Origin: Climacium dendroides
Lineage: Eukaryota > Streptophyta > Bryopsida > Hypnales > Climaciaceae
Reading direction: 5' to 3'
NCBI GenBank assembly: GCA_950106755.1
Contig: OX467090.1
Span: 4,154,001 to 4,218,000, forward strand
DNA: 64,000 nt
The position numbers and the translations under genes are program-made. A model generated the notes under the pieces. That model was given only the letters and a program-made list of their open reading frames with translations, searched no databases and was not told the DNA's origin. Position 1 is the stretch's first letter, and the number at the start of each line of letters is the position of its first letter. This document shows, one piece after another, positions 16,838 through 60,347 of this stretch.

Positions 16838-16845
16838 AGTGGCAT

Positions 16846-16998
16846 CATGGTTGTCATACTGAACAAGTTACTATTCATTTCTTGTCATGTAGGACGAGTT
16901 ACTATTCATCAAATGTACTTGAGAGGTACATTTGATGAATAGTAACTTGTCCTACATGACAAGAAATGAATAGTAACTTGTCTAATATGACAACCATG
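16846..16998. mobile_element. Palindromic hAT MITE, copy 2
   Basis: 153 bp, almost a perfect palindrome centred on TGTACTTGAGAGGTACA. The ends are CATGGTTGTCATACTG and complement. Perfect 8-bp duplication AGTGGCAT on both sides (16838-16845, 16999-17006). Confidence 0.92.
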
Positions 16999-17006
16999 AG
17001 TGGCAT

Positions 17007-18540: not shown

Positions 18541-19017
18541 AAATTCTTTTTCGAGCTGTGGCTATCAATGAAAAAGTGACAATTTTGCTGGAAAGAGGTC
18601 GACCAAACCTTAATGGGTTAACACTGGGCGAGGGACGCTGGGACGGATGTCCTTCGTTTGTTGGACAGAGCCACAGAGGCGGGAGGCACTCAGCGGACGT
18701 TGCCGCTGCTACACGTATCCCCTGCCAGTCTGTCAGCACAGTCGAGTTGAACTAAAGAACTGGACAAGACACTGCCAGTACATCGTAGCGTGCCAAGCAA
18801 GCTGGTTTAATTTACTCGTACCGACACTTCGACAAATCGAACAGTGCCGGGTAGTGGCATCGTACGTTCGCGCAAACTCAGACTAACTCGCCGTGCAATG
18901 AAAAAATGCAAACGCATGTGGCTTGCCAATCTTATCGTTCGATACACGAACAGGATAGACACCTTGATAAGCAGATGGTGCATGATCGAGATAAATTTGT
19001 CCTAACTTTGTGCTCTT
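18541..19017. other. GC-richer stretch downstream of peptide gene C
   Basis: Distinctly GC-richer than its surroundings, with overlapping short open frames in several directions. It lies just beyond the conserved tail of the peptide gene at 19448. No protein family was recognised, so no gene is called. Confidence 0.3.
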
Positions 19018-19447
19018 TTTTTACATCACCAACTCGGAATTGGCTCAGGCCAAAGAATGGCAACTACTCTAAGCCAGGCCCCTTGATCGACAAAACGGGG
19101 TCCGAAGAATGGTTATATGAATGATCTACTATTCCGAAATGTCGAAACGACATATGGGGCCGGGTCAACTAATTTGACACCAGAAAAATATGCAGATTTG
19201 CTGTAAGGATGATCGAGGTCTCGAAGAAAATACTAGATCCCTCACTCTAGAGTCTGTAACATGATCGCCTCCGCGATCATGTAGATTAATTCTAGCTTTA
19301 GCAAGTGGTCACTCTGGGTGACGGTCATCGCTAGGTGTACAAAAATTGTTGATCAACAATTTTTTGTACATTGATCGCTGCATGTACAAAAATTGTTGAT
19401 CAAATCTCGGCACTTGATCTCCACAGAAGTACTCAAGTCGGATGATT
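19018..19447 (-). other. Conserved downstream tail of peptide gene C
   Basis: This stretch follows the stop codon of the minus-strand gene at 19448. It is similar over about 400 bp to the tails of the two other complete copies (41694-42110, 43381-43766). Shared landmarks include GGTCACTCTGGGTGAC (19307-19322), GAATTGGCTCAG, ACAAAACGGGGTCC and CTTTTTTTTACATC. Two hairpins are special to this copy: ACATGATCGC-CTCC-GCGATCATGT at 19259-19282, and TGTACAAAAATTGTTGA with its complement at about 19337-19371. It is probably 3' untranslated region. Confidence 0.55.
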
Positions 19448-19633
19448 TCAGAAGTCCTTTCCGGGTCTCCATTTGGAGGATCGTCCGTCCCCTTCACAGT
19501 CGTCGTCGCAGGAGCAGTAGTGTGAGTGAGGCCTCCACCGCGAGGATCCACCATCCTCTTCCCAGTTTCCGTAGTCCCGAGAGTAGGAAGACGGGTTCCA
19601 CCTCGAACCACCACCATCACCTTCAGCACCCAT
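19448..19633 (-). CDS. Small GDGGSSRWRP-repeat protein, copy C
   Basis: A 61-aa protein from ATG at 19633, chosen because MGAEGDGGGS matches the starts of copies A and B. An upstream in-frame ATG would add five residues not seen in the others. It has three repeats: EGDGGGSRWNP near residue 4, EEDGGSSRWRP near 25 and EGDGRSSKWRP near 47, ending GKDF. It has no signal peptide, membrane segment or coiled coil. Compared with A and B it has lost the two cysteines in the first linker (SSYSRDYGNW versus SCYAGDYEDC) and carries several other replacements, so its constraint may be relaxed. Its function is unknown. It is acidic and Gly/Ser/Trp-rich with an exposed Gly2 after Met. Confidence 0.6.
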   Translation of the reverse strand: MGAEGDGGGSRWNPSSYSRDYGNWEEDGGSSRWRPHSHYCSCDDDCEGDGRSSKWRPGKDF

Positions 19634-30897: not shown

Positions 30898-31794
30898 TTT
30901 TCAAAGTTCTGACACAAACAGAAAAAGATTTCATTGGAACAGAAAAATACAACAAAATCCAGCAAGTATGGTCTAGAGGGGTTAGCAACTAAAGTAACAG
31001 AAAACATTCTTTGTGTCACTTGCCCCCCGGGCCACTTGTCGCTCAGTTCTTAGTTCTTTTTTCTTCTTCAGTTGTAGTGAAGGTCTCCTTTATTTGTGTC
31101 AAGAAGAAGTAACAAAAAACATAAGGGCCTCGTGCCATGTGAGATTAGTAGGCAAAAAAAGCACTGGAAGACAAGAAGATCCCACAAATATCCTTACTAG
31201 ACAGTCTTGTTGAGCGGGAAAAGAGGATTTCATGTTTCACCAAAATTGGTGGACAACTCCATTGGTTGAGATTGGTCAATCTTGAGGAAATTAATATGTG
31301 GGGAATTCTTACTCAATTTCTTCCCTCATTTCTTCCCCACTCACTAGGTTCACATGTCAATACAAGTTCTCACTTGAATCCTATAGCTCCTTTAAAAACT
31401 TTGCCCATTGGTTTTATATGTCAAAAGGCCCTGAGTAAGGCGAGAACAAAGAGAAGCTGTCATTGTCACTATTAGTGGAAGGAACACCACGGGGTACTAG
31501 TACCAAGTGATTGCAAGAAACACTTTGTCTTCTTAGCTTTATATGGTTGTTTTTCCATCTATAACTTTTGCAAAGTATGTCTAATGTATATGAAATTTGA
31601 AATGAAGATACATGTGATAGTTGTAGACATAATGTAATTTTTTGCACTTTTCAAAAACTAGTTTACTATTTTCAAAGAACCCCCAATTAAATGCCTATTT
31701 TTTTCCATTTTGAAGTTTTTGGTTCTATTTTTGACTTGAAAATGTAATTTTTGAGCCAAAAATTGGGGAAGTAGGTGTTGTACATACTTATACT
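30898..31794. other. Interval without a recognised gene
   Basis: Mixed composition, slightly GC-richer to about 31250, then AT-rich. Short open frames on both strands have no known motif. The first part could be 3' sequence of the relic at 29060-30897. Confidence 0.35.
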
Positions 31795-31948
31795 CATGGT
31801 TGTCATACTAGACAAGTTACTATTCATTTCTTGTCCTGTAGGACGAGTTACTATTCATTAAATGTACCTCTCCAAGTACATTTGATGAATAGTAACTCGT
31901 CCTACAGGACGAAAAATGAATAGTAACTTGTCCAGTATTACAACCATG
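31795..31948. mobile_element. Palindromic hAT MITE, copy 3
   Basis: 154 bp with ends CATGGTTGTCATACTAG and complement. Perfect 8-bp duplication CTTATACT on both sides (31787-31794, 31949-31956). Confidence 0.92.
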
Positions 31949-39390: not shown

Positions 39391-39398
39391 GGTTGAGT

Positions 39399-39551
39399 CA
39401 TGGTTGTCATACTAGACAAGTTACTATTCATTTTTCGTCCTGTAGGACGAGTTACTATTCATCAAATGTACTTGAGAGGTACATTTGATGAATAGTAACT
39501 CGTCCTATAGGACAAGAAATGAATAGTAACTTGTCCAGTATGACAACCATG
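39399..39551. mobile_element. Palindromic hAT MITE, copy 4
   Basis: 153 bp, near-perfect palindrome. Perfect 8-bp duplication GGTTGAGT at 39391-39398 and 39552-39559. Confidence 0.92.
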
Positions 39552-39559
39552 GGTTGAGT

Positions 39560-41209: not shown

Positions 41210-41216
41210 TATAAGG
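41210..41216 (+). promoter_or_regulatory. TATA-like box of peptide gene A
   Basis: TATAAGG, followed by CACTGGCCTCCATTCCTCATTC. A similar TATAAGGAG...CTCATTC arrangement precedes copy B. The start codon is about 290 bp further on, leaving a long 5' leader that is partly conserved between A and B (GAGTTATCAGCCAAGATCA, and AGCAAAGTT then GAGGTCTCTCC). Confidence 0.5.
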
Positions 41217-41507
41217 ACCCGCACTGGCCTCCATTCCTCATTCACAACTCATTCCAGCTCTTCAATACATTCATCAGTCGACCCCTCGACCTCGCATTCG
41301 AGTTATCAGCCAAGATCACTCTCCAGTGAACTCGAGTCCCGGTTTGAGTATTCTCGTAGAATTAAGGGCAGTGCAAGTTTTGGTCCGTTCAGAGAACATC
41401 CCGGTCTCTAGCTAACTAAGTATATAAATTCGATCGTAGAAAGATTTGACAGCAAAGTTTAGCAATTGAGGTCTCTCCTGTACGTGCTAGCAAGCAAAGG
41501 TCTTGCC

Positions 41508-41693
41508 ATGGGTGCGGAAGGTGATGGTGGAGGTTCGAAATGGAACCCGTCTTGCTACGCTGGGGACTACGAAGACTGCGAAGGGGATGGCGGATCCTCG
41601 AGATGGAGGCCGCCCTCGCACAGCCGCTGCTGCGACGACGACTGTGAAGGGGACGGAGGATCCTCCAAGTGGAGACCCGGAAAGGGGTTCTGA
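41508..41693 (+). CDS. Small GDGGSSRWRP-repeat protein, copy A
   Basis: 61 aa, ATG at 41508 in a strong plant context (GCCATGGG). It has three repeats: EGDGGGSKWNP (residues 4-14), EGDGGSSRWRP (25-35) and EGDGGSSKWRP (47-57), ending GKGF. The linkers hold cysteines: SCYAGDYEDC, then SRCCDDDC. No signal peptide or membrane segment, so it is probably cytosolic or nuclear; Met-Gly leaves a Gly2. Two other frames are also open across this stretch. This frame is chosen because all seven substitutions in the aligned parts of copy B fall at third codon positions and are silent here (codons 3, 5, 8, 14, 31, 35, 60). It is acidic overall with basic W-R-P pockets. The family is unknown to me. It is paired tail to tail with copy B. 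Confidence 0.75.
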   Translation: MGAEGDGGGSKWNPSCYAGDYEDCEGDGGSSRWRPPSHSRCCDDDCEGDGGSSKWRPGKGF

Positions 41694-42110
41694 AAGAAAT
41701 CCGAATTGGGTACTTACTTGGAGATCAAGTGCCAATTGAGATTCAACAGTTTTGTACATACAGCGATCAATACAAACACCGAGCAATGGTAGTCACCCAG
41801 AGTGACCAGTTGCGCGAGCTAGATATGCGGAGGCGATGGTTCAGAATCTCAAGAGAATGTATTTTTTTCTCAGAGGCTTCATCCTTTCAGCAGATCTGCA
41901 AAAGAAATTTGGTGTCAAATTAGTTGAACCTAGCTACCATTCCGACCTTCAGAATCCTAGATTATTCATACAACCATTCTTTTGAGACCCCGTTTTGTAG
42001 AGCAGGGGCCAGGGGTAGAGTAGATACCATTCTTTGGTCTGAGCCAATTCCTTGTTGGCGATGTAAAAAAGACCACAAAGACAAATTTTTCTTATGCATC
42101 ATCTTCTGAC
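41694..42110 (+). other. Conserved downstream tail of peptide gene A
   Basis: It matches the tail of copy B (43381-43766) very closely and copy C (19018-19447) more loosely. Shared landmarks run in order: GAAATCCGAATTGGGTACTT, CCAATTGAGATTCA, GTCACCCAGAGTGACC (41792-41807, identical in all three), GCGGAGGCGATGG, GACCCCGTTTTGTAG, GAGCCAATTCC, GCGATGTAAAAAAGACCAC. It is probably the 3' untranslated region. Its length and conservation exceed what chance would keep in diverged copies. Confidence 0.6.
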
Positions 42111-43380
42111 CAAAAGTGTCTATTCATACATGTAATCATGTATCAAACGACGAGATTTTCATGTCATGTTTACGTGTCCGGGAGTGACCATATATTGCTA
42201 TGCTGCACTTGCACTGTATGAAGCTAGTCTGTGACCATGCATTATTATGTAGCACTTGCACTGAACGAAGCCACTGTGCGACACTAGCTGTTGATAGATA
42301 GGCACGGTTGAAGTGTCGGTATCAGTAAATTATTTCAGCTAGCTTGGTACGCACGGTGCACTTGCATTGTCTTGTCGATTCACAGCTTAGTTTGGTTCAA
42401 CTGGATTGGGAGGGACGGACTGGCACGACTTACAGGCAAGTGTATCGCCAGCCGAATCGTGACATGATGGAATTCTTAGATTCGATATGCAGCTGGTGAT
42501 AATATATTGTGCACAACATCTAGAGATATTCTGGTCAGGATCGGAAGAGTTAAACACATTCACTTTCAAGACACGCAATAACGTGATGATATGATGACAT
42601 GCACAGTTTCGGATCGGAAGGCAGCCAGGGTCTCACAGGGCAGGAAAACGGACTGCAAGTCTGCAAGACCATATCTGTAAAGTTGGTACCAGAGTAAAAT
42701 CTAGACTTTATCAGTTTGCAATGAAAATGAATTTTAATTCTTAAATTTATCTGGAGTTCTTTGCCGGGCAATCAAGCATGTAAGAAAAAACCTCTAGTAG
42801 CACACTGAACCTAATTTTAATATATCTTGGAAAGTTGTTCCTCCTTGCTGTAAATCTCAAAATTCTCCATAAAAATGATATTTTTCGAGTTTGATCCCAA
42901 CTTATGAAATGAAGTTCATCTACTCTAGTTTCTACTCCAATTTATTTGAATTTTGAAAAAAAATCCTAAAATTGAATACTTTATTGCAATTCAAAATTGG
43001 GTGTATTTTCAATATAAAAATAAAAATAAAAGTATTCGTTCAGATGTTGATAGTTGCTAAATGGGAGTGCTGGAGTTTGACCTCCAACTCTGTTTCTCAT
43101 AGGCCAGGCCAAAGGGATAAACAGAGAAAGTACATCTCCACAAAAGTAAGACTCTTGAAACATCAATTTAGTTGCACATCTGAAGTTCTGCTAATAAGTA
43201 GAACTGCAGAAGAGTTCAATTATGCAGGGGCTTGAGTTGGCCGCTTCCCGACGCCATACTCTGCATTGTGTGCTAATGCACTTTGATGACCCCGGACGAG
43301 CATTGCTAATAGTCTCAATACGAACGAATACAAAATAGACAATCGTGTTGGATCAGAAGATGACTCATGAAAAATAATTC
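42111..43380. other. Spacer between the tail-to-tail peptide genes
   Basis: 1.27 kb with no assigned gene. The first half is GC-richer (to about 42780), the second AT-rich. Short open frames on both strands have no known motif. Any readthrough transcript of A or B would pass through it into the antisense of the partner. Confidence 0.4.
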
Positions 43381-43766
43381 TTAACTTTTGTGGTCTTTTT
43401 TACATCGCCAGTTGACAAGGAATTGGCTCAGACCAAAGAATGGCAACTCATCTACCCCGCGCCCCCGCTACAAAACGGGGTCCAGAGAATGGTTGTATGA
43501 ATGATCTAGGATTCCGAAGGTCGGAACGGTGGAGTCAACTAGTTTGACACCGAAAAAATTTGAAGATTTGCTGAAAGGATGAAACCTCTGAGAAAAATAT
43601 TAATCTCCCGAGATTCTAAACCATCGCCTCCGCATATCTAGCTCGCGCAACTGGTCACTCTGGGTGACTACCATTGCTCGGTGTTTGTATTGATCTCTGT
43701 ATGTACAAAACTATTGAATCTCAATTGGCACTTGATCTCCAAGTAAGTACCCAATTCGGATTTCTT
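43381..43766 (-). other. Conserved downstream tail of peptide gene B
   Basis: On the minus strand it follows the stop of copy B and is a near copy of 41694-42110 in inverted orientation, including GGTCACTCTGGGTGAC at 43653-43668. Differences from A are scattered and include small indels, unlike the coding part where only silent changes occur. Confidence 0.6.
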
Positions 43767-44000
43767 TCAGAAGCCCTTTCCGGGTCTCCACTTGGAGGAT
43801 CCTCCGTCCCCTTCACAGTCGTCGTGGTAGCCGCAGCAGTGCGAGGGCGGTCTCCATCGGGAAGCGCCCCCATCGCCTTCCACGTGGTGCGAGGGTGGCC
43901 TCCATCTTGAGGATCCGCCATCCCCTTCGCAGTCTTCGTAGTCCCCAGCGTAGCAAGAAGGGTTCCATTTCGAACCACCACCATCGCCTTCAGCACCCAT
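43767..44000 (-). CDS. Small GDGGSSRWRP-repeat protein, copy B (four repeats)
   Basis: 77 aa, ATG at 44000 aligned with copies A and C. It has four repeats: EGDGGGSKWNP (residues 4-14), EGDGGSSRWRP (25-35), EGDGGASRWRP (40-50) and EGDGGSSKWRP (63-73), ending GKGF. The third is an extra 16-aa unit (about SHHVEGDGGASRWRPP) absent from A and C, so the repeat number has changed by an internal gain or loss. The cysteine linker SCYAGDYEDC is as in A; the last linker is SHCCGYHDDC. All substitutions relative to A in the shared codons are silent. Function unknown; probably soluble and intracellular. Confidence 0.75.
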   Translation of the reverse strand: MGAEGDGGGSKWNPSCYAGDYEDCEGDGGSSRWRPPSHHVEGDGGASRWRPPSHCCGYHDDCEGDGGSSKWRPGKGF

Positions 44001-44322
44001 TGCAATATCTTTCTAGCTAGCACAAGATCGGAGAGACCTCAGTGAACTTTGCTAACTGTTCGAATCACCGTAGAAACGAAGCAGGATCGATCGAACGACA
44101 ATTGAACCGATCAGAGTGATCTCTTGACAGAGCCCAACTTGAACTTGCCACTTCCAGGAGGACTAGCTCTAAGTATTTCCCTTCAGAATCAACGAACTGG
44201 AGATCGATCTTTAGCTGATAACGAGAATGCAACTTCAACACTTCGAAAGCTAGAATTCGATCACTGATGGAAATGAATGAATGAGTGAGAGCGGACATGA
44301 GGAGTGGTGCAAGTGCAATTCT

Positions 44323-44330
44323 CCTTATAT
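44323..44330 (-). promoter_or_regulatory. TATA box of peptide gene B
   Basis: On the minus strand the sequence reads ATATAAGGAG about 325 bp before the start codon, followed by CCACTCCTCATG and CTCACTCATTCATTC, much as in copy A. The leader then shares GTTATCAGCTAAAGATC and GAGGTCTCTCC with copy A. Confidence 0.5.
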
Positions 44331-44334
44331 GGCG

Positions 44335-45098
44335 ATCAGCTTCCCCGGCTCTCAGTTCCAGTGCCTTTGCCTTCGGCTCATGCTTGTAGCTAGCAGCTGC
44401 ATCAAATTTGACTGCAGTCTTGGTCAAGTTCCCCGTCGGTAAGCGCGTCTGCTGAAACGAAGCGCAGAGTGTCAATCGGTTACGCCGAGACGACACGAGA
44501 CAGTGAGATCATGACGCCCACCTTCGGCAAAATTAGATAACAAAAGCGAAAGGTAGGCCCAACTGAAAATTAAAAGACCGAGGCAACGGATTCAATTTCA
44601 ACGCCACAAGCTGCTCTGGCACCTATTCCAAGGTAGCTAATTTCGTAGCGCTGGAAGTGGACCAGCCTGGGAGTCCAGGTGCCGGCAGGCTGTTCGAGCA
44701 CAAATTAAAAGACCGGGCGAGGGGCTTAAGAAGGACTAAAGGGCAGCCCTCCTTCTGTCTCTCGTGCCTTCGCTCGTGTGCTGAGCTCCATGAAATTTTC
44801 ATTTTTCTAAGAAAATACCAAAATAGAATTTAAGAAAACAGGCCTTGGCATTGGGGAGAAAAGTACGGTATATTGGAACAGAAGCGGGTCAGGCGGGGCC
44901 GTGAGGATTTTTTCTACGTCAGCAAGCTCGTGCCTAGCTAGCTCGTGGTAGGATTAGTAGGACCCGGCCACCAGGGGGTGCGGATGAGTGATGGCGGGTG
45001 ACTGCGGAAGTTGGACTCCGTGGGGCTTCAGTGGGGCTTCCGTGGGACTCCGTGGGGCTTCAGTTCGGAGCGATGGGGCCGACTTTGGATGAAATTCG
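44335..45098. other. GC-richer upstream region of peptide gene B
   Basis: No gene is assigned. It contains the shared GGCTGT...GAGCACAAATTAAA block (about 44687-44708) and a short tandem array of TGGGGCTTCAG/TGGGACTCCG units near 45020-45065. A minus-strand open frame (44954-45334) runs over the array and is probably a by-product of it. Confidence 0.35.
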
Positions 45099-53603: not shown

Positions 53604-53790
53604 AGAGACCCCACAGCATACAAAACACACTCCAAGGACTTCTCCACTCCAGGGACTCTCACGCTCCAAGCTCACAACGTTTATGCATTTTAGGGACTCG
53701 TGCTCTTATAATAGAGTGAGGGTTAGGTAGCACTTGAGTGAAGTTTTAGTGTGAGTTTGAAATTTTTAATTTGTTTTTTTTAGGATTTGG

Positions 53791-54639
53791 ATGACCAATC
53801 CGGGCTTCTTGGCAAGCATGATGTTTGAGAGTGATGAGAGTGCGGACAGTTTGTCGGAGTCAGAGTTTGAGGGGGGTAGTTTTGAAGAGACCATAGATAC
53901 TCCAACAACGATTCTGTCAACCAATACTTCCATCCCAGCCTCGGCATTACCCACAAGTGTTCCAGTTCCGAAACATTGTGAGTGGGGCAATGACGAGACA
54001 CAATTTTTGCTGGACTTATTGCATGAGCGTATTGTAGAGTCAGGGTGGCAATCTATCCGAGCCAAAGATTGGGAAGCAATTATGCGATTACGTTTGGTTG
54101 AGTATTTTCCATTGGAGGCCAGTCGCCAAGGGTTGCATTTAAAAGACAAGTGGGCCAAAATGCGTCAACAATATTACCGTAAGAAAAAAATTTACAACGT
54201 TTCGGGGGACAACTCTGAACTTACACGGTAGACGTGGTATAATGTCATAAATATCATGTTGAGTGAGACTGCAAAGGCCAACGGTGTTCCAGGTGCTAAT
54301 GATCAAGGGACACATGTCATTAGCACCCAAGTTCCTCCAAAGGAAGTTGAGGTCCACGATGCAGCAGTTCGTGCCGGTAATTTATCGAGAGTTCGTGGAG
54401 TAGTTGTGAAGTGTCAGAAGTTCAATGGTAATATGGCTAGTGCATTGAATCGCTTTGCTAAGTCATCTGCTCGTATTGAGAAGACAAAGATGGAGACTAC
54501 AATTGAGCTTGTAAGAGACAACAAAAAGTTTGAATTAGATGTTCTCCAAGCAACACAAGCTTCTCAAGAGCGTGTAGTAGCTTTATTTGCAATTGTCATT
54601 CGTAGCCAGTGGACTGGAAATGACCACATAGCTAAGTGA
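53791..54639 (+). pseudogene. PIF/Harbinger ORF1: Myb/SANT-like DNA-binding protein, broken
   Basis: One frame of 283 codons with a single internal TAG at 54229-54231. The first part has an acidic Ser/Glu-rich N-terminus (residues about 12-35). A Myb/SANT-like trihelix domain follows (about 64-135), with Trp65 (EWGNDETQFLLDLLHE), Trp86, Trp94 and LKDKWAKMRQQYYRKKK. After the stop the same frame continues with TWYNVINIML and a helical C-terminal region. PIF/Harbinger and related Pong elements encode two proteins, and ORF1 of this type helps the transposase bind and enter the nucleus (established for the family). The convergent transposase remnant at 56580-57714 supports the assignment. The stop makes this copy probably non-functional, although a spliced or readthrough product cannot be excluded. 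Confidence 0.7.
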
Positions 54640-56579: not shown

Positions 56580-57714
56580 CTATGTACTAGGATTGCTAGC
56601 TAGCCAAGCTCCATATAAAGCCCTCCTCATACTTTTCCTAGCAAGTTTTGCTCCATTACCATCATTTGGCAAATGCTGTGCTCCTTGTTGTCTACCAGCA
56701 AATGGATTAGTTACTTGTCCGAAAATCTCTGGTAATGAAAGTCTTTCACCATGCAATTCACAATAGTTATGCAGGACGCAACAAGCAATTGTTACAGTCG
56801 CGCACTTGTTGACATTGCCACCAAAGCTCTTCAAAATCCTCCACCGATTCTTTAAAGTACCCAAAGCATGCTCAATAACAACCCTGCCCGCATTGATAGA
56901 AGCATCAAATATCTTCTGGTCACGAAAAGCAGGATTTGTTGGCTTATAGTTCTTCAATAGGTAGGGCCGGCTTGAATAAACTGAATGTCCAATCAAGTAT
57001 GGTTTCACTTGAACACCTCTAACTACAATGGTAGGATGTAATAAAATTTGCCTCTAATGTAATTCATGGTTTAAAAAAGACCATCGAAATTGTCCTGCAT
57101 CATAAAGCATGGTTGTCATACTAGACAAGTTACTATTCATTTCTTGTCCTATAGGACGAGTTACTATTCATTAAATGTACTTGAAAGGTACATTTGATGA
57201 ATAGTAACTCGTCCTACAGGACAATAAATGAATAGTAACTTGTCTAATATAACAACCATGTCATAAATTCCACCAGGCTGCCCTGTATAAACATTCCAAA
57301 ATATTCTATTCATATCACAAACCCCTTGTAGTACAAGACTATGAAACTTCTTCCTGTTAAAGAAATCCGAAGCCATGGGTGTAAGGTCACTATTAAGGCG
57401 CCGAGCAAGAGGAATGTGGGTCCCATCTATGGCTCCACAAATGTTAGGCAACCCCGTTGAATTCTTAAATCTCTCCATGATGTCATGTATGTAGTCTATC
57501 TCCAGTTGGAGTGTGAATGTAAGTGGTAAAAAGACCTCCGTCCCGACTACTTAGGACTCCACAAACTATATTAATGTATTTACAGATTGTGGATGCTCCA
57601 CATCCATACAAGTCATTCATCTTCTCACATGTTATTTCGCCAAGGGCATCCTGCTAAGAAAATGAAAAAACCCACTAAAAGAAGCAAATTAGTTTCATCG
57701 TCATTCAACGCCAT
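56580..57714 (-). pseudogene. PIF/Harbinger DDE transposase remnant
   Basis: From ATG at 57714 (MALNDDETNLLLL) the minus strand shows, in order: a helix-turn-helix-like stretch (ALGEITCEKMNDLYGCGAST), IHTPTGDRLHT, the hallmark CGAIDGTHIPL, VYTGQPGGIYD then GQFRWSFLNHELH, KPYLIGHSVY, and VVIEHALGTLKNRWRILKSF. Of the three catalytic acids of IS5/PIF transposases, the first Asp (codon 57425-57427) and the Glu (56871-56873) are present. The second, normally Asp in GDSAY, is His here (56985-56987). Further lesions are a probable intron or stop near 57655, a frameshift near 57490-57500, a hAT MITE at 57108-57260 splitting the YDAGQF motif, and an in-frame TAG at 57054-57056. It cannot make an active transposase. 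It is convergent with ORF1 at 53791. Confidence 0.88.
57108..57260. mobile_element. Palindromic hAT MITE, copy 5, in the transposase gene
   Basis: 153 bp with ends CATGGTTGTCATACTAG and complement. The 8-bp duplication is TCATAAAG at 57100-57107 and TCATAAAT at 57261-57268 (one mismatch). Removing the element restores the continuous GGIYD-AGQF reading of the Harbinger transposase. Confidence 0.9.
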
Positions 57715-59990: not shown

Positions 59991-60047
59991 TCACCTGATG
60001 CGCGGTGGATTCCACCGTGAGTTCCCTCCGTCTCCTTCGGAACCCAT
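59991..60047 (-). pseudogene. Fragment of the GDGGSSRWRP-repeat gene, copy D
   Basis: On the minus strand MGSEGDGGNSRWNPPRIR-stop (18 codons) matches the first repeat of copies A-C, including the Met-Gly start and WNP. It ends after one repeat, and the second and third repeats are not found downstream. The sequence at the end, ATCAGGTGATT, holds a possible splice donor, so a longer spliced form is conceivable. The frame is also open upstream of the Met. Confidence 0.5.
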
Positions 60048-60347
60048 TCTGCTCGGCAACGTAATTCTAATCCTGTTGATTAGAAATGGCATCGTTGGGA
60101 ACCTGAAAATTCTCGCTGGTGTAAATTGTCCACCTCTTGGAAAAGTGCCTCTGAATTTAGCTCCGAAACACGGACACGGCAGTTTGTTGTGAGTGAAGAA
60201 CCTCTGAAGACTGTTGGCAATTGTTAACTCTAAATAGTCAAGGCCCAAGTGTCTGAGAGAAATACCGTATACGATTCGGACAAGCTTTGCTCAAGTAGAA
60301 ATGGACTGATGTAGTTCTTGTCTACACAAATCTCGTTAGCTTGAAGT

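What the first reader, a model, noticed from the sequence alone, without database searches (positions are those of the whole stretch)
41508..44000. Undescribed small protein family built from GDGGSS(R/K)WRP repeats
Copies A (61 aa) and B (77 aa) consist of three and four repeats of EGDGGSS(R/K)WRP joined by short cysteine- and acid-containing linkers. I do not recognise the family. Seven substitutions separate the shared codons of A and B and all seven are silent third-position changes in this frame, though two other frames are also open. That is strong evidence of a translated protein under purifying selection. There is no signal peptide, so it is not a classical secreted peptide precursor.
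Basis: partly seen in the sequence, partly recalled or inferred. Interest (0 to 1): 0.9.

Follow-up and report, generated by a model that had tools for sequence, protein, structure and literature searches.

The report
Moss microproteins built from docking-like repeats
The window carries several genes for a tiny, probably unfolded, apparently undescribed moss-type protein made of repeats of one short amino-acid motif, and relatives with the same or a similar motif in other mosses suggest that the motif does a conserved job nobody has yet named.

Summary
A (41508-41693, +, 61 aa) and B (43767-44000, -, 77 aa) carry three and four copies of EGDGG[GSA]S[KR]W[NR]P. Their 56 gap-free shared codons differ at seven places, all silent third positions. 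The window holds two more members: C (19448-19633, -, 61 aa, three repeats, two degraded) and D (59991-60047, -, one repeat). The motif occurs 9 times in the window and 0 times in 100 shuffles. A and B match no Pfam family. Three protein searches gave 20 distinct relatives, 9 of them at E<=1e-3. One is a Physcomitrium patens protein with three repeats. Two named Sphagnum proteins score weakly (E 0.46, 6.1) and are accepted on motif order and a PGK ending. So this looks like a moss family; 12 motif strings found no paper. The moss micropeptide PSEP3 matched by length, but its printed sequence rules it out. AlphaFold gives B pLDDT 53.7. Most likely these are intracellular disordered microproteins that present one to four copies of a docking motif to an unknown partner. 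Coding is well supported by sequence. Transcription, translation and mechanism are inferred.

The parts
41508..41693 (+). Copy A CDS, 61 aa, three motif repeats; start codon context GCCATGG
43767..44000 (-). Copy B CDS, 77 aa, four motif repeats
19448..19633 (-). Copy C CDS, 61 aa, three repeats of which two are degraded (EEDGGSS, GDGRSS)
   Evidence: self-blastn; translation
59991..60047 (-). Copy D, 18-aa ORF with one repeat, MGSEGDGGNSRWNPPRIR; an in-frame ATG at 60092 would make it 33 aa. May instead be exon 1 (AG|GTGATT at its end), untested
41210..41215 (+). TATA-like box (TATAAG) 298 nt before the A start codon; no ATG in between
44324..44329 (-). TATA-like box (TATAAG) 329 nt before the B start codon
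41112..41138 (+). TACCGAC (DRE-like) then TTGACC (W-box-like), 98 and 77 nt upstream of A's TATA-like box; site names recalled
44422..44441 (-). TACCGAC then TTGACC, 112 and 98 nt upstream of B's TATA-like box, same order as in A
41694..42124 (+). Conserved 3' flank (probable 3' UTR) of A; homologous to B and C
43334..43766 (-). Conserved 3' flank of B
18990..19447 (-). Conserved 3' flank of C, with a palindromic insertion

Best explanation
A, B, C and D are members of a moss family of intrinsically disordered microproteins. Shown by sequence: the genes encode one to four copies of a short motif, [GP]DGGxS[KR]WxP(P), that is kept while linkers, length and repeat number drift. Inferred: the proteins stay inside the cell (no signal peptide), have no fold of their own, and act by presenting the motif as a short linear docking peptide. 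The Gly-Asp-Gly-Gly turn, the serine and the Trp-x-Pro tip would be read by one conserved partner, and repetition would give avidity or let one molecule gather several partners. Promoters of A and B with a TATA-like box and DRE-like plus W-box-like sites hint, weakly, at induction by stress.
For: Motif conserved, linkers not: A/C changes 3 of 33 in the motif against 11 of 28 in linkers. 11 repeat units in the window give pN/pS 0.18 in this frame and 0.14 within B (units were picked by the motif, so this is biased), and the frame-blind repeats of B agree. Of 20 relatives, 18 carry at least two copies by a relaxed pattern that lets the final proline vary; P0011 and P0018 show one. In six related proteins (P0010, P0012-P0014, P0016, P0017; two of them named Sphagnum) the first two motif stretches are nearly invariant, while P0010 is only 45% identical overall. 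AlphaFold: B pLDDT 53.7, pTM 0.12; P0017 47.9, pTM 0.14, slightly higher around those two stretches. No signal-like stretch in A, B or C. Promoter sites.
Against: No partner is known and none could be sought, so docking is an inference from motif anatomy. AlphaFold on alignments of 16 and 6 sequences cannot tell disorder from ignorance. The antisense frame in which third positions face each other also looks constrained (0.24). C has lost motif residues, and P0010 lacks the third stretch. The promoter sites were noticed after the fact, A and B share ancestry, and W-box-like sites alone are expected 0.84 times per 500 nt in this window.
Confidence: 0.5

Rival explanations
1. The proteins are precursors of a signalling peptide released without a signal peptide, as recalled for systemin and Pep-type precursors: each GDGGxSKWxPP unit would be cut out of the linkers and sensed by a receptor, and several copies per precursor would raise the dose.
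For: Tandem near-identical units with variable linkers; dibasic or basic linkers in some relatives (GGKRRE, GGNKRSE); no signal-like stretch in A, B, C; W-box-like sites.
Against: Linkers in A, B and C are acidic and cysteine-containing, without a shared cleavage site; basic pairs are not conserved across the 16 sequences aligned; single-motif forms exist (D, P0011).
Confidence: 0.22
2. The repeats form a metal-binding or redox-sensitive tether: Asp, Cys and His in the linkers bind ions or cross-link.
For: A and B have five Cys each and acidic linkers.
Against: Cysteines are absent from P0001, P0002, P0004, P0005, P0006 and P0007 and fewer in C (three), so they cannot be the common function.
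Confidence: 0.08
3. The locus acts as RNA: A and B lie tail to tail as an inverted pair (arms 41451-42124 and 43334-44053), so read-through would make a hairpin feeding small RNAs, and the ORF is incidental.
For: About 82% identical inverted arms; the 3' flanks are conserved too, 95% for A/B next to the CDS.
Against: The amino-acid motif is kept in relatives elsewhere and silent changes dominate in A/B; C is not part of the hairpin; the consensus fold of the 3' flanks has only 2 of 107 pairs with compensatory change, in three sequences.
Confidence: 0.06
4. Lineage-specific translated but functionless repeats (junk microproteins or decaying gene copies).
For: C is degraded and under weak constraint (pN/pS 0.44); no transcript evidence was available.
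Against: Seven of seven silent A/B changes; the same motif in Physcomitrium and, less surely, Sphagnum.
Confidence: 0.1

Closest known systems
Physcomitrium patens A9U494_PHYPA (UniRef 'Predicted protein', 219 aa)
   Same: Ends in three copies of GDGGSSKWRPPSK; the last Met-initiated 57 aa have the layout of A and B
   Different: The annotated model has a 162-aa N-terminal extension, probably a gene-model artefact (inference); tail MAWEDN instead of PGKGF; no acidic linkers like those of A and B
Sphagnum fallax BDL97_07G095400 and S. magellanicum CY35_07G103200 (hypothetical proteins)
   Same: Three motif-like stretches in order, the last followed by PGK and an aromatic end (PGK + three residues + W; PGKGF in A and B)
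   Different: About 50 residues before the first motif, Trp replaced by Tyr or Ile in two stretches; weak E-values (0.46 and 6.1)
PSEP3 and other PSEP micropeptides of Physcomitrium (PSEP1, 18, 25)
   Same: Moss micropeptides of 40-61 aa; PSEP3 is 57 aa long
   Different: The sequences printed in PMC13205790 (passage) lack GDGGxSxW; PSEP3 is Asn/Pro-rich. PSEP18 ends GGKGWRPSS, a faint resemblance only
Systemin / Pep-type cytosolic peptide precursors (recalled)
   Same: No signal peptide, small, possible multi-unit precursor
   Different: No sequence similarity that I know of; no shared cleavage site here
AGO-hook (GW/WG) proteins (recalled)
   Same: Spaced tryptophans in disordered sequence; P0020 has GW in two of its repeats, and P0012-P0014, P0016 and P0017 have a GW outside the repeats
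   Different: In A, B and C no Trp touches a Gly, and the Trp context is strictly conserved rather than loose

Membership tests
Moss GDGGxSxWxP repeat microproteins (family as seen here) | One or more [GP]DGGxS[KR]WxP motifs, the first soon after the start Met, small size | tested here: met
   A, B and D: all units intact; C: one of three units intact
Moss GDGGxSxWxP repeat microproteins (family as seen here) | Sequence similarity to proteins elsewhere beyond chance | tested here: met
   9 of 20 hits at E<=1e-3 over (one of them, P0002, only with a profile that contains it); the other 11 at 0.012 to 8.7. Searches scored only the 7985 and 7988 candidates sharing most words
PSEP3 | Sequence identity to the 57-aa PSEP3 | tested here: not met
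   Sequence printed in a table of PMC13205790, passage seen
Classical secreted peptide precursors | N-terminal signal peptide | tested here: not met
   A, B, C: best 15-residue mean hydropathy near the N-terminus -0.93, -0.93 and -1.16; a hydropathy check, not a signal-peptide predictor
Cysteine-rich peptides | Conserved cysteine pattern | tested here: not met
   6 of the 7 relatives P0001-P0007 have no Cys
AGO-hook proteins | Trp next to Gly (GW/WG); definition recalled | tested here: not met
   No GW or WG in A, B or C (sequences); some relatives have GW (P0020, P0012-P0014, P0016, P0017)
SAND domain | About 80-residue alpha/beta domain (recalled) | tested here: not met
   Only PDB hit for B, SP100-B, E 1.2 over 36 residues; no Pfam match for A or B
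Cytosolic peptide-hormone precursors | Release of an active peptide that elicits a response | not testable with these tools
   needs peptidomics and bioassay

The most novel reading that the evidence does not exclude
GDGGxS[KR]WxPP is a moss-wide signalling or docking peptide with a dedicated, still unknown receptor or adaptor, kept since the split of Sphagnum from other mosses and amplified locally as repeat arrays of varying length. Motif number per protein would be an evolving dial of avidity or dose.
Probability: 0.25. Interest if true: 0.8.

Novelty: new variant of a known kind. Interest (0 to 1): 0.55.

Why it matters
Small proteins are among the least annotated parts of plant genomes. 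This one has a motif so regular that it can be made as a synthetic peptide and used as bait at once, in moss models such as Physcomitrium where gene targeting is routine (recalled). If one partner reads the motif across mosses, it would reveal a module that annotation pipelines missed because the proteins are short, disordered and repetitive.

Tried and rejected
PSEP3: the 57-aa repeat ORF at the end of A9U494 matches PSEP3 in length, and PSEP3 is described as proline-enriched and of low complexity (passage of PMC12294436). The printed PSEP3 sequence (passage of PMC13205790) is different, so the lead was dropped. Two original papers on PSEP3 and the moss lncRNA microprotein study are not held.

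SAND-domain resemblance: E 1.2 in the PDB search with B, dropped. Viral and bacterial collections: 20 and 38 pattern matches, none confirmed by tblastn. Rfam on the whole window at gathering thresholds: nothing. Conserved RNA fold in the 3' flank: 2 of 107 pairs compensatory in three sequences, not pursued. Topic searches of papers gave listings, none of which I recognised as being about this family; passages of PMC10638237, PMC8658490 and PMC11055055 added nothing on the motif.

dN/dS on relatives' DNA was not possible: I had only their proteins.

Full report
WHAT IS THERE. Copy A runs from 41508 to 41693 on the + strand (61 aa), copy B from 44000 down to 43767 on the - strand (77 aa). They lie tail to tail as the outer ends of an inverted pair whose arms (41451-42124 and 43334-44053) are about 82% identical. 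A self-comparison of the window found a third copy, C, at 19633-19448 on the - strand (61 aa). A motif scan found a fourth, D, at 60047-59991 on the - strand, a single-motif ORF of 18 aa (33 aa from an in-frame upstream ATG).

MORE THAN CHANCE. The pattern GDGG.S[KR]W.P occurs 9 times in six frames of the window (A 3, B 4, C 1, D 1) and 0 times in 100 first-order Markov shuffles. In A versus B, the 56 codons that align without gaps differ at seven, all silent third positions (pN/pS 0 in this frame). The linker before the last repeat, with its 16-codon in-frame indel, was left out of that count and does change amino acids.

TESTS OF CODING. (a) Three of the four repeats of B, found by a frame-blind DNA search (family D3), differ at codon positions 1, 2, 3 by [2,0,7], [3,4,7] and [3,4,9]. 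(b) Eleven repeat units from A-D give pN/pS 0.18 in frame, 1.06 to 3.39 in four other frames, and 0.24 in the antisense frame whose third positions face those of the sense frame. These units were picked by the motif, so this test leans towards the frame. (c) A versus C: pN/pS 0.44 in frame, 1.20 and 0.91 in the other two sense frames; amino-acid changes hit 3 of 33 motif residues and 11 of 28 linker residues (p 0.007). (d) Identity of A to C is 50% in the leader, 86.6% in the CDS, 72% and 81% in the two parts of the 3' flank. Against: for A and B the 3' flank next to the CDS is as conserved as the CDS (95% and 94%), so that pair shows constraint only through codon position. C has lost motif residues and is under weaker constraint.

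RELATIVES ELSEWHERE. Three searches of a 5.8-billion-protein set gave 2, 18 and 3 hits at E<=10, 20 distinct proteins in all; the second and third scored only the 7985 and 7988 candidates sharing most words, so the list may be incomplete. Nine reach E<=1e-3: P0001-P0007, P0019, P0020. Two qualifications: P0001 and P0002 were part of the profile (alone, with B as query, they score 2.5e-5 and 0.063), and the composite query contains a stretch of P0003. P0019 is A9U494 of Physcomitrium patens, which ends in three GDGGSSKWRPPSK repeats. Among the 11 weaker hits are Sphagnum fallax (P0013, E 0.46) and S. magellanicum (P0017, E 6.1) proteins. I accept these on three motif-like stretches in order and on the ending PGK plus three residues plus W, which recalls PGKGF of A, B (PGKDF in C). 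A tblastn of them against the window gives 2e-9 and 5.6e-9 on copy B with composition correction and low-complexity filter off, which inflates significance. Physcomitrium (Bryopsida) and Sphagnum (Sphagnopsida) are in different moss classes. Bacterial and viral collections gave no confirmed relative. That the window itself is moss DNA is inferred from these relatives and its 34% GC; its species is not known to me.

SUBGROUPS. By eye: A/B/C and the Sphagnum-type proteins with a PGK ending; P0003, P0006 and P0019 with a short acidic tail (LLEDIDNINW, FVEDFLNIN, MAWEDN); P0008, P0009 and P0020 with SVPDGGSSRWRPPK. Motif copies per protein range from one to four.

NATURE OF THE PROTEIN. A and B match no Pfam family; of 10 relatives scanned, none has a match above a curated cut-off (the one weak match, DUF5744 in P0020, E 0.055, is below it). 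No relative of known structure for B. No hydrophobic N-terminus in A, B or C. AlphaFold gives pLDDT 53.7 and pTM 0.12 for B with 16 sequences and 47.9 and 0.14 for P0017 with 6, consistent with disorder, though shallow alignments give low confidence anyway.

GENE ANATOMY. A and B have TATAAG 298 and 329 nt before the ATG; no ATG lies in the 400 nt before the start of A, and in B the nearest upstream ATG (-298) falls about where transcription should begin. Upstream of both TATA-like boxes, TACCGAC is followed by TTGACC, 21 nt apart start to start in A and 14 nt in B. TACCGAC occurs 6 times in the 64 kb, both strands; TTGAC[CT] 107 times (0.84 expected per 500 nt). I recall these as DRE-like and W-box-like stress sites. 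The pattern was noticed after the fact, so it is a hint only. In their 500 nt C has a W-box-like site but no DRE-like site, D has both, and neither has a TATA match.

HOW IT PROBABLY WORKS. A conserved short motif inside unconserved linkers, with copy number free to vary and no predicted fold, is the anatomy of an array of short linear docking motifs. I therefore favour an intracellular disordered microprotein that presents the motif to one conserved partner (0.5). The main rival is a signal-peptide-free precursor of a signalling peptide (0.22). Which partner, which process and whether the protein is made are not shown.

LITERATURE. Searches of 5.39 million open-access papers for 12 motif strings gave 0 papers. 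The PSEP3 lead was tested and failed (passages of PMC9638090, PMC12294436, PMC11756074, PMC13205790). The original PSEP papers were not seen. Absence from print is claimed only for these searches.

Noticed in passing
window 56583-57550 (-): Remains of a Harbinger-type transposase (Pfam DDE_Tnp_4 in two ORFs, E 6.6e-10 and 1.3e-6; 'Harbinger' recalled), with a Myb/SANT-like ORF at 53770-54228 (+) nearby that is just below its Pfam cut-off (26.2 against 27 bits).
   Followed up: partly
window 16845-16999, 31792-31948, 39398-39554, 57108-57260 (and split at 5820-5882/6021-6116): A family of about 155-nt near-perfect palindromes, about 89-96% alike, probably miniature transposons. The copy at 57108-57260 overlaps the edge of a transposase ORF.
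   Followed up: no
window 41694-42124, 43334-43766, 18990-19447: The 3' flanks of A, B and C share blocks unchanged in all three, such as GTCACCCAGAGTGACCA (a short hairpin) and CTGAGCCAATTCC, 72-81% identity overall for A/C; function unknown.
   Followed up: partly
P0003, P0006, P0019 (database proteins): A second possible conserved element, a short acidic C-terminal tail (LLEDIDNINW / FVEDFLNIN / AWEDN), in one subgroup of relatives.
   Followed up: no
PSEP18 in PMC13205790: This 40-aa moss micropeptide ends GGKGWRPSS, faintly like the Sphagnum-type stretch GDGKGSSWRPP; may be chance.
   Followed up: no
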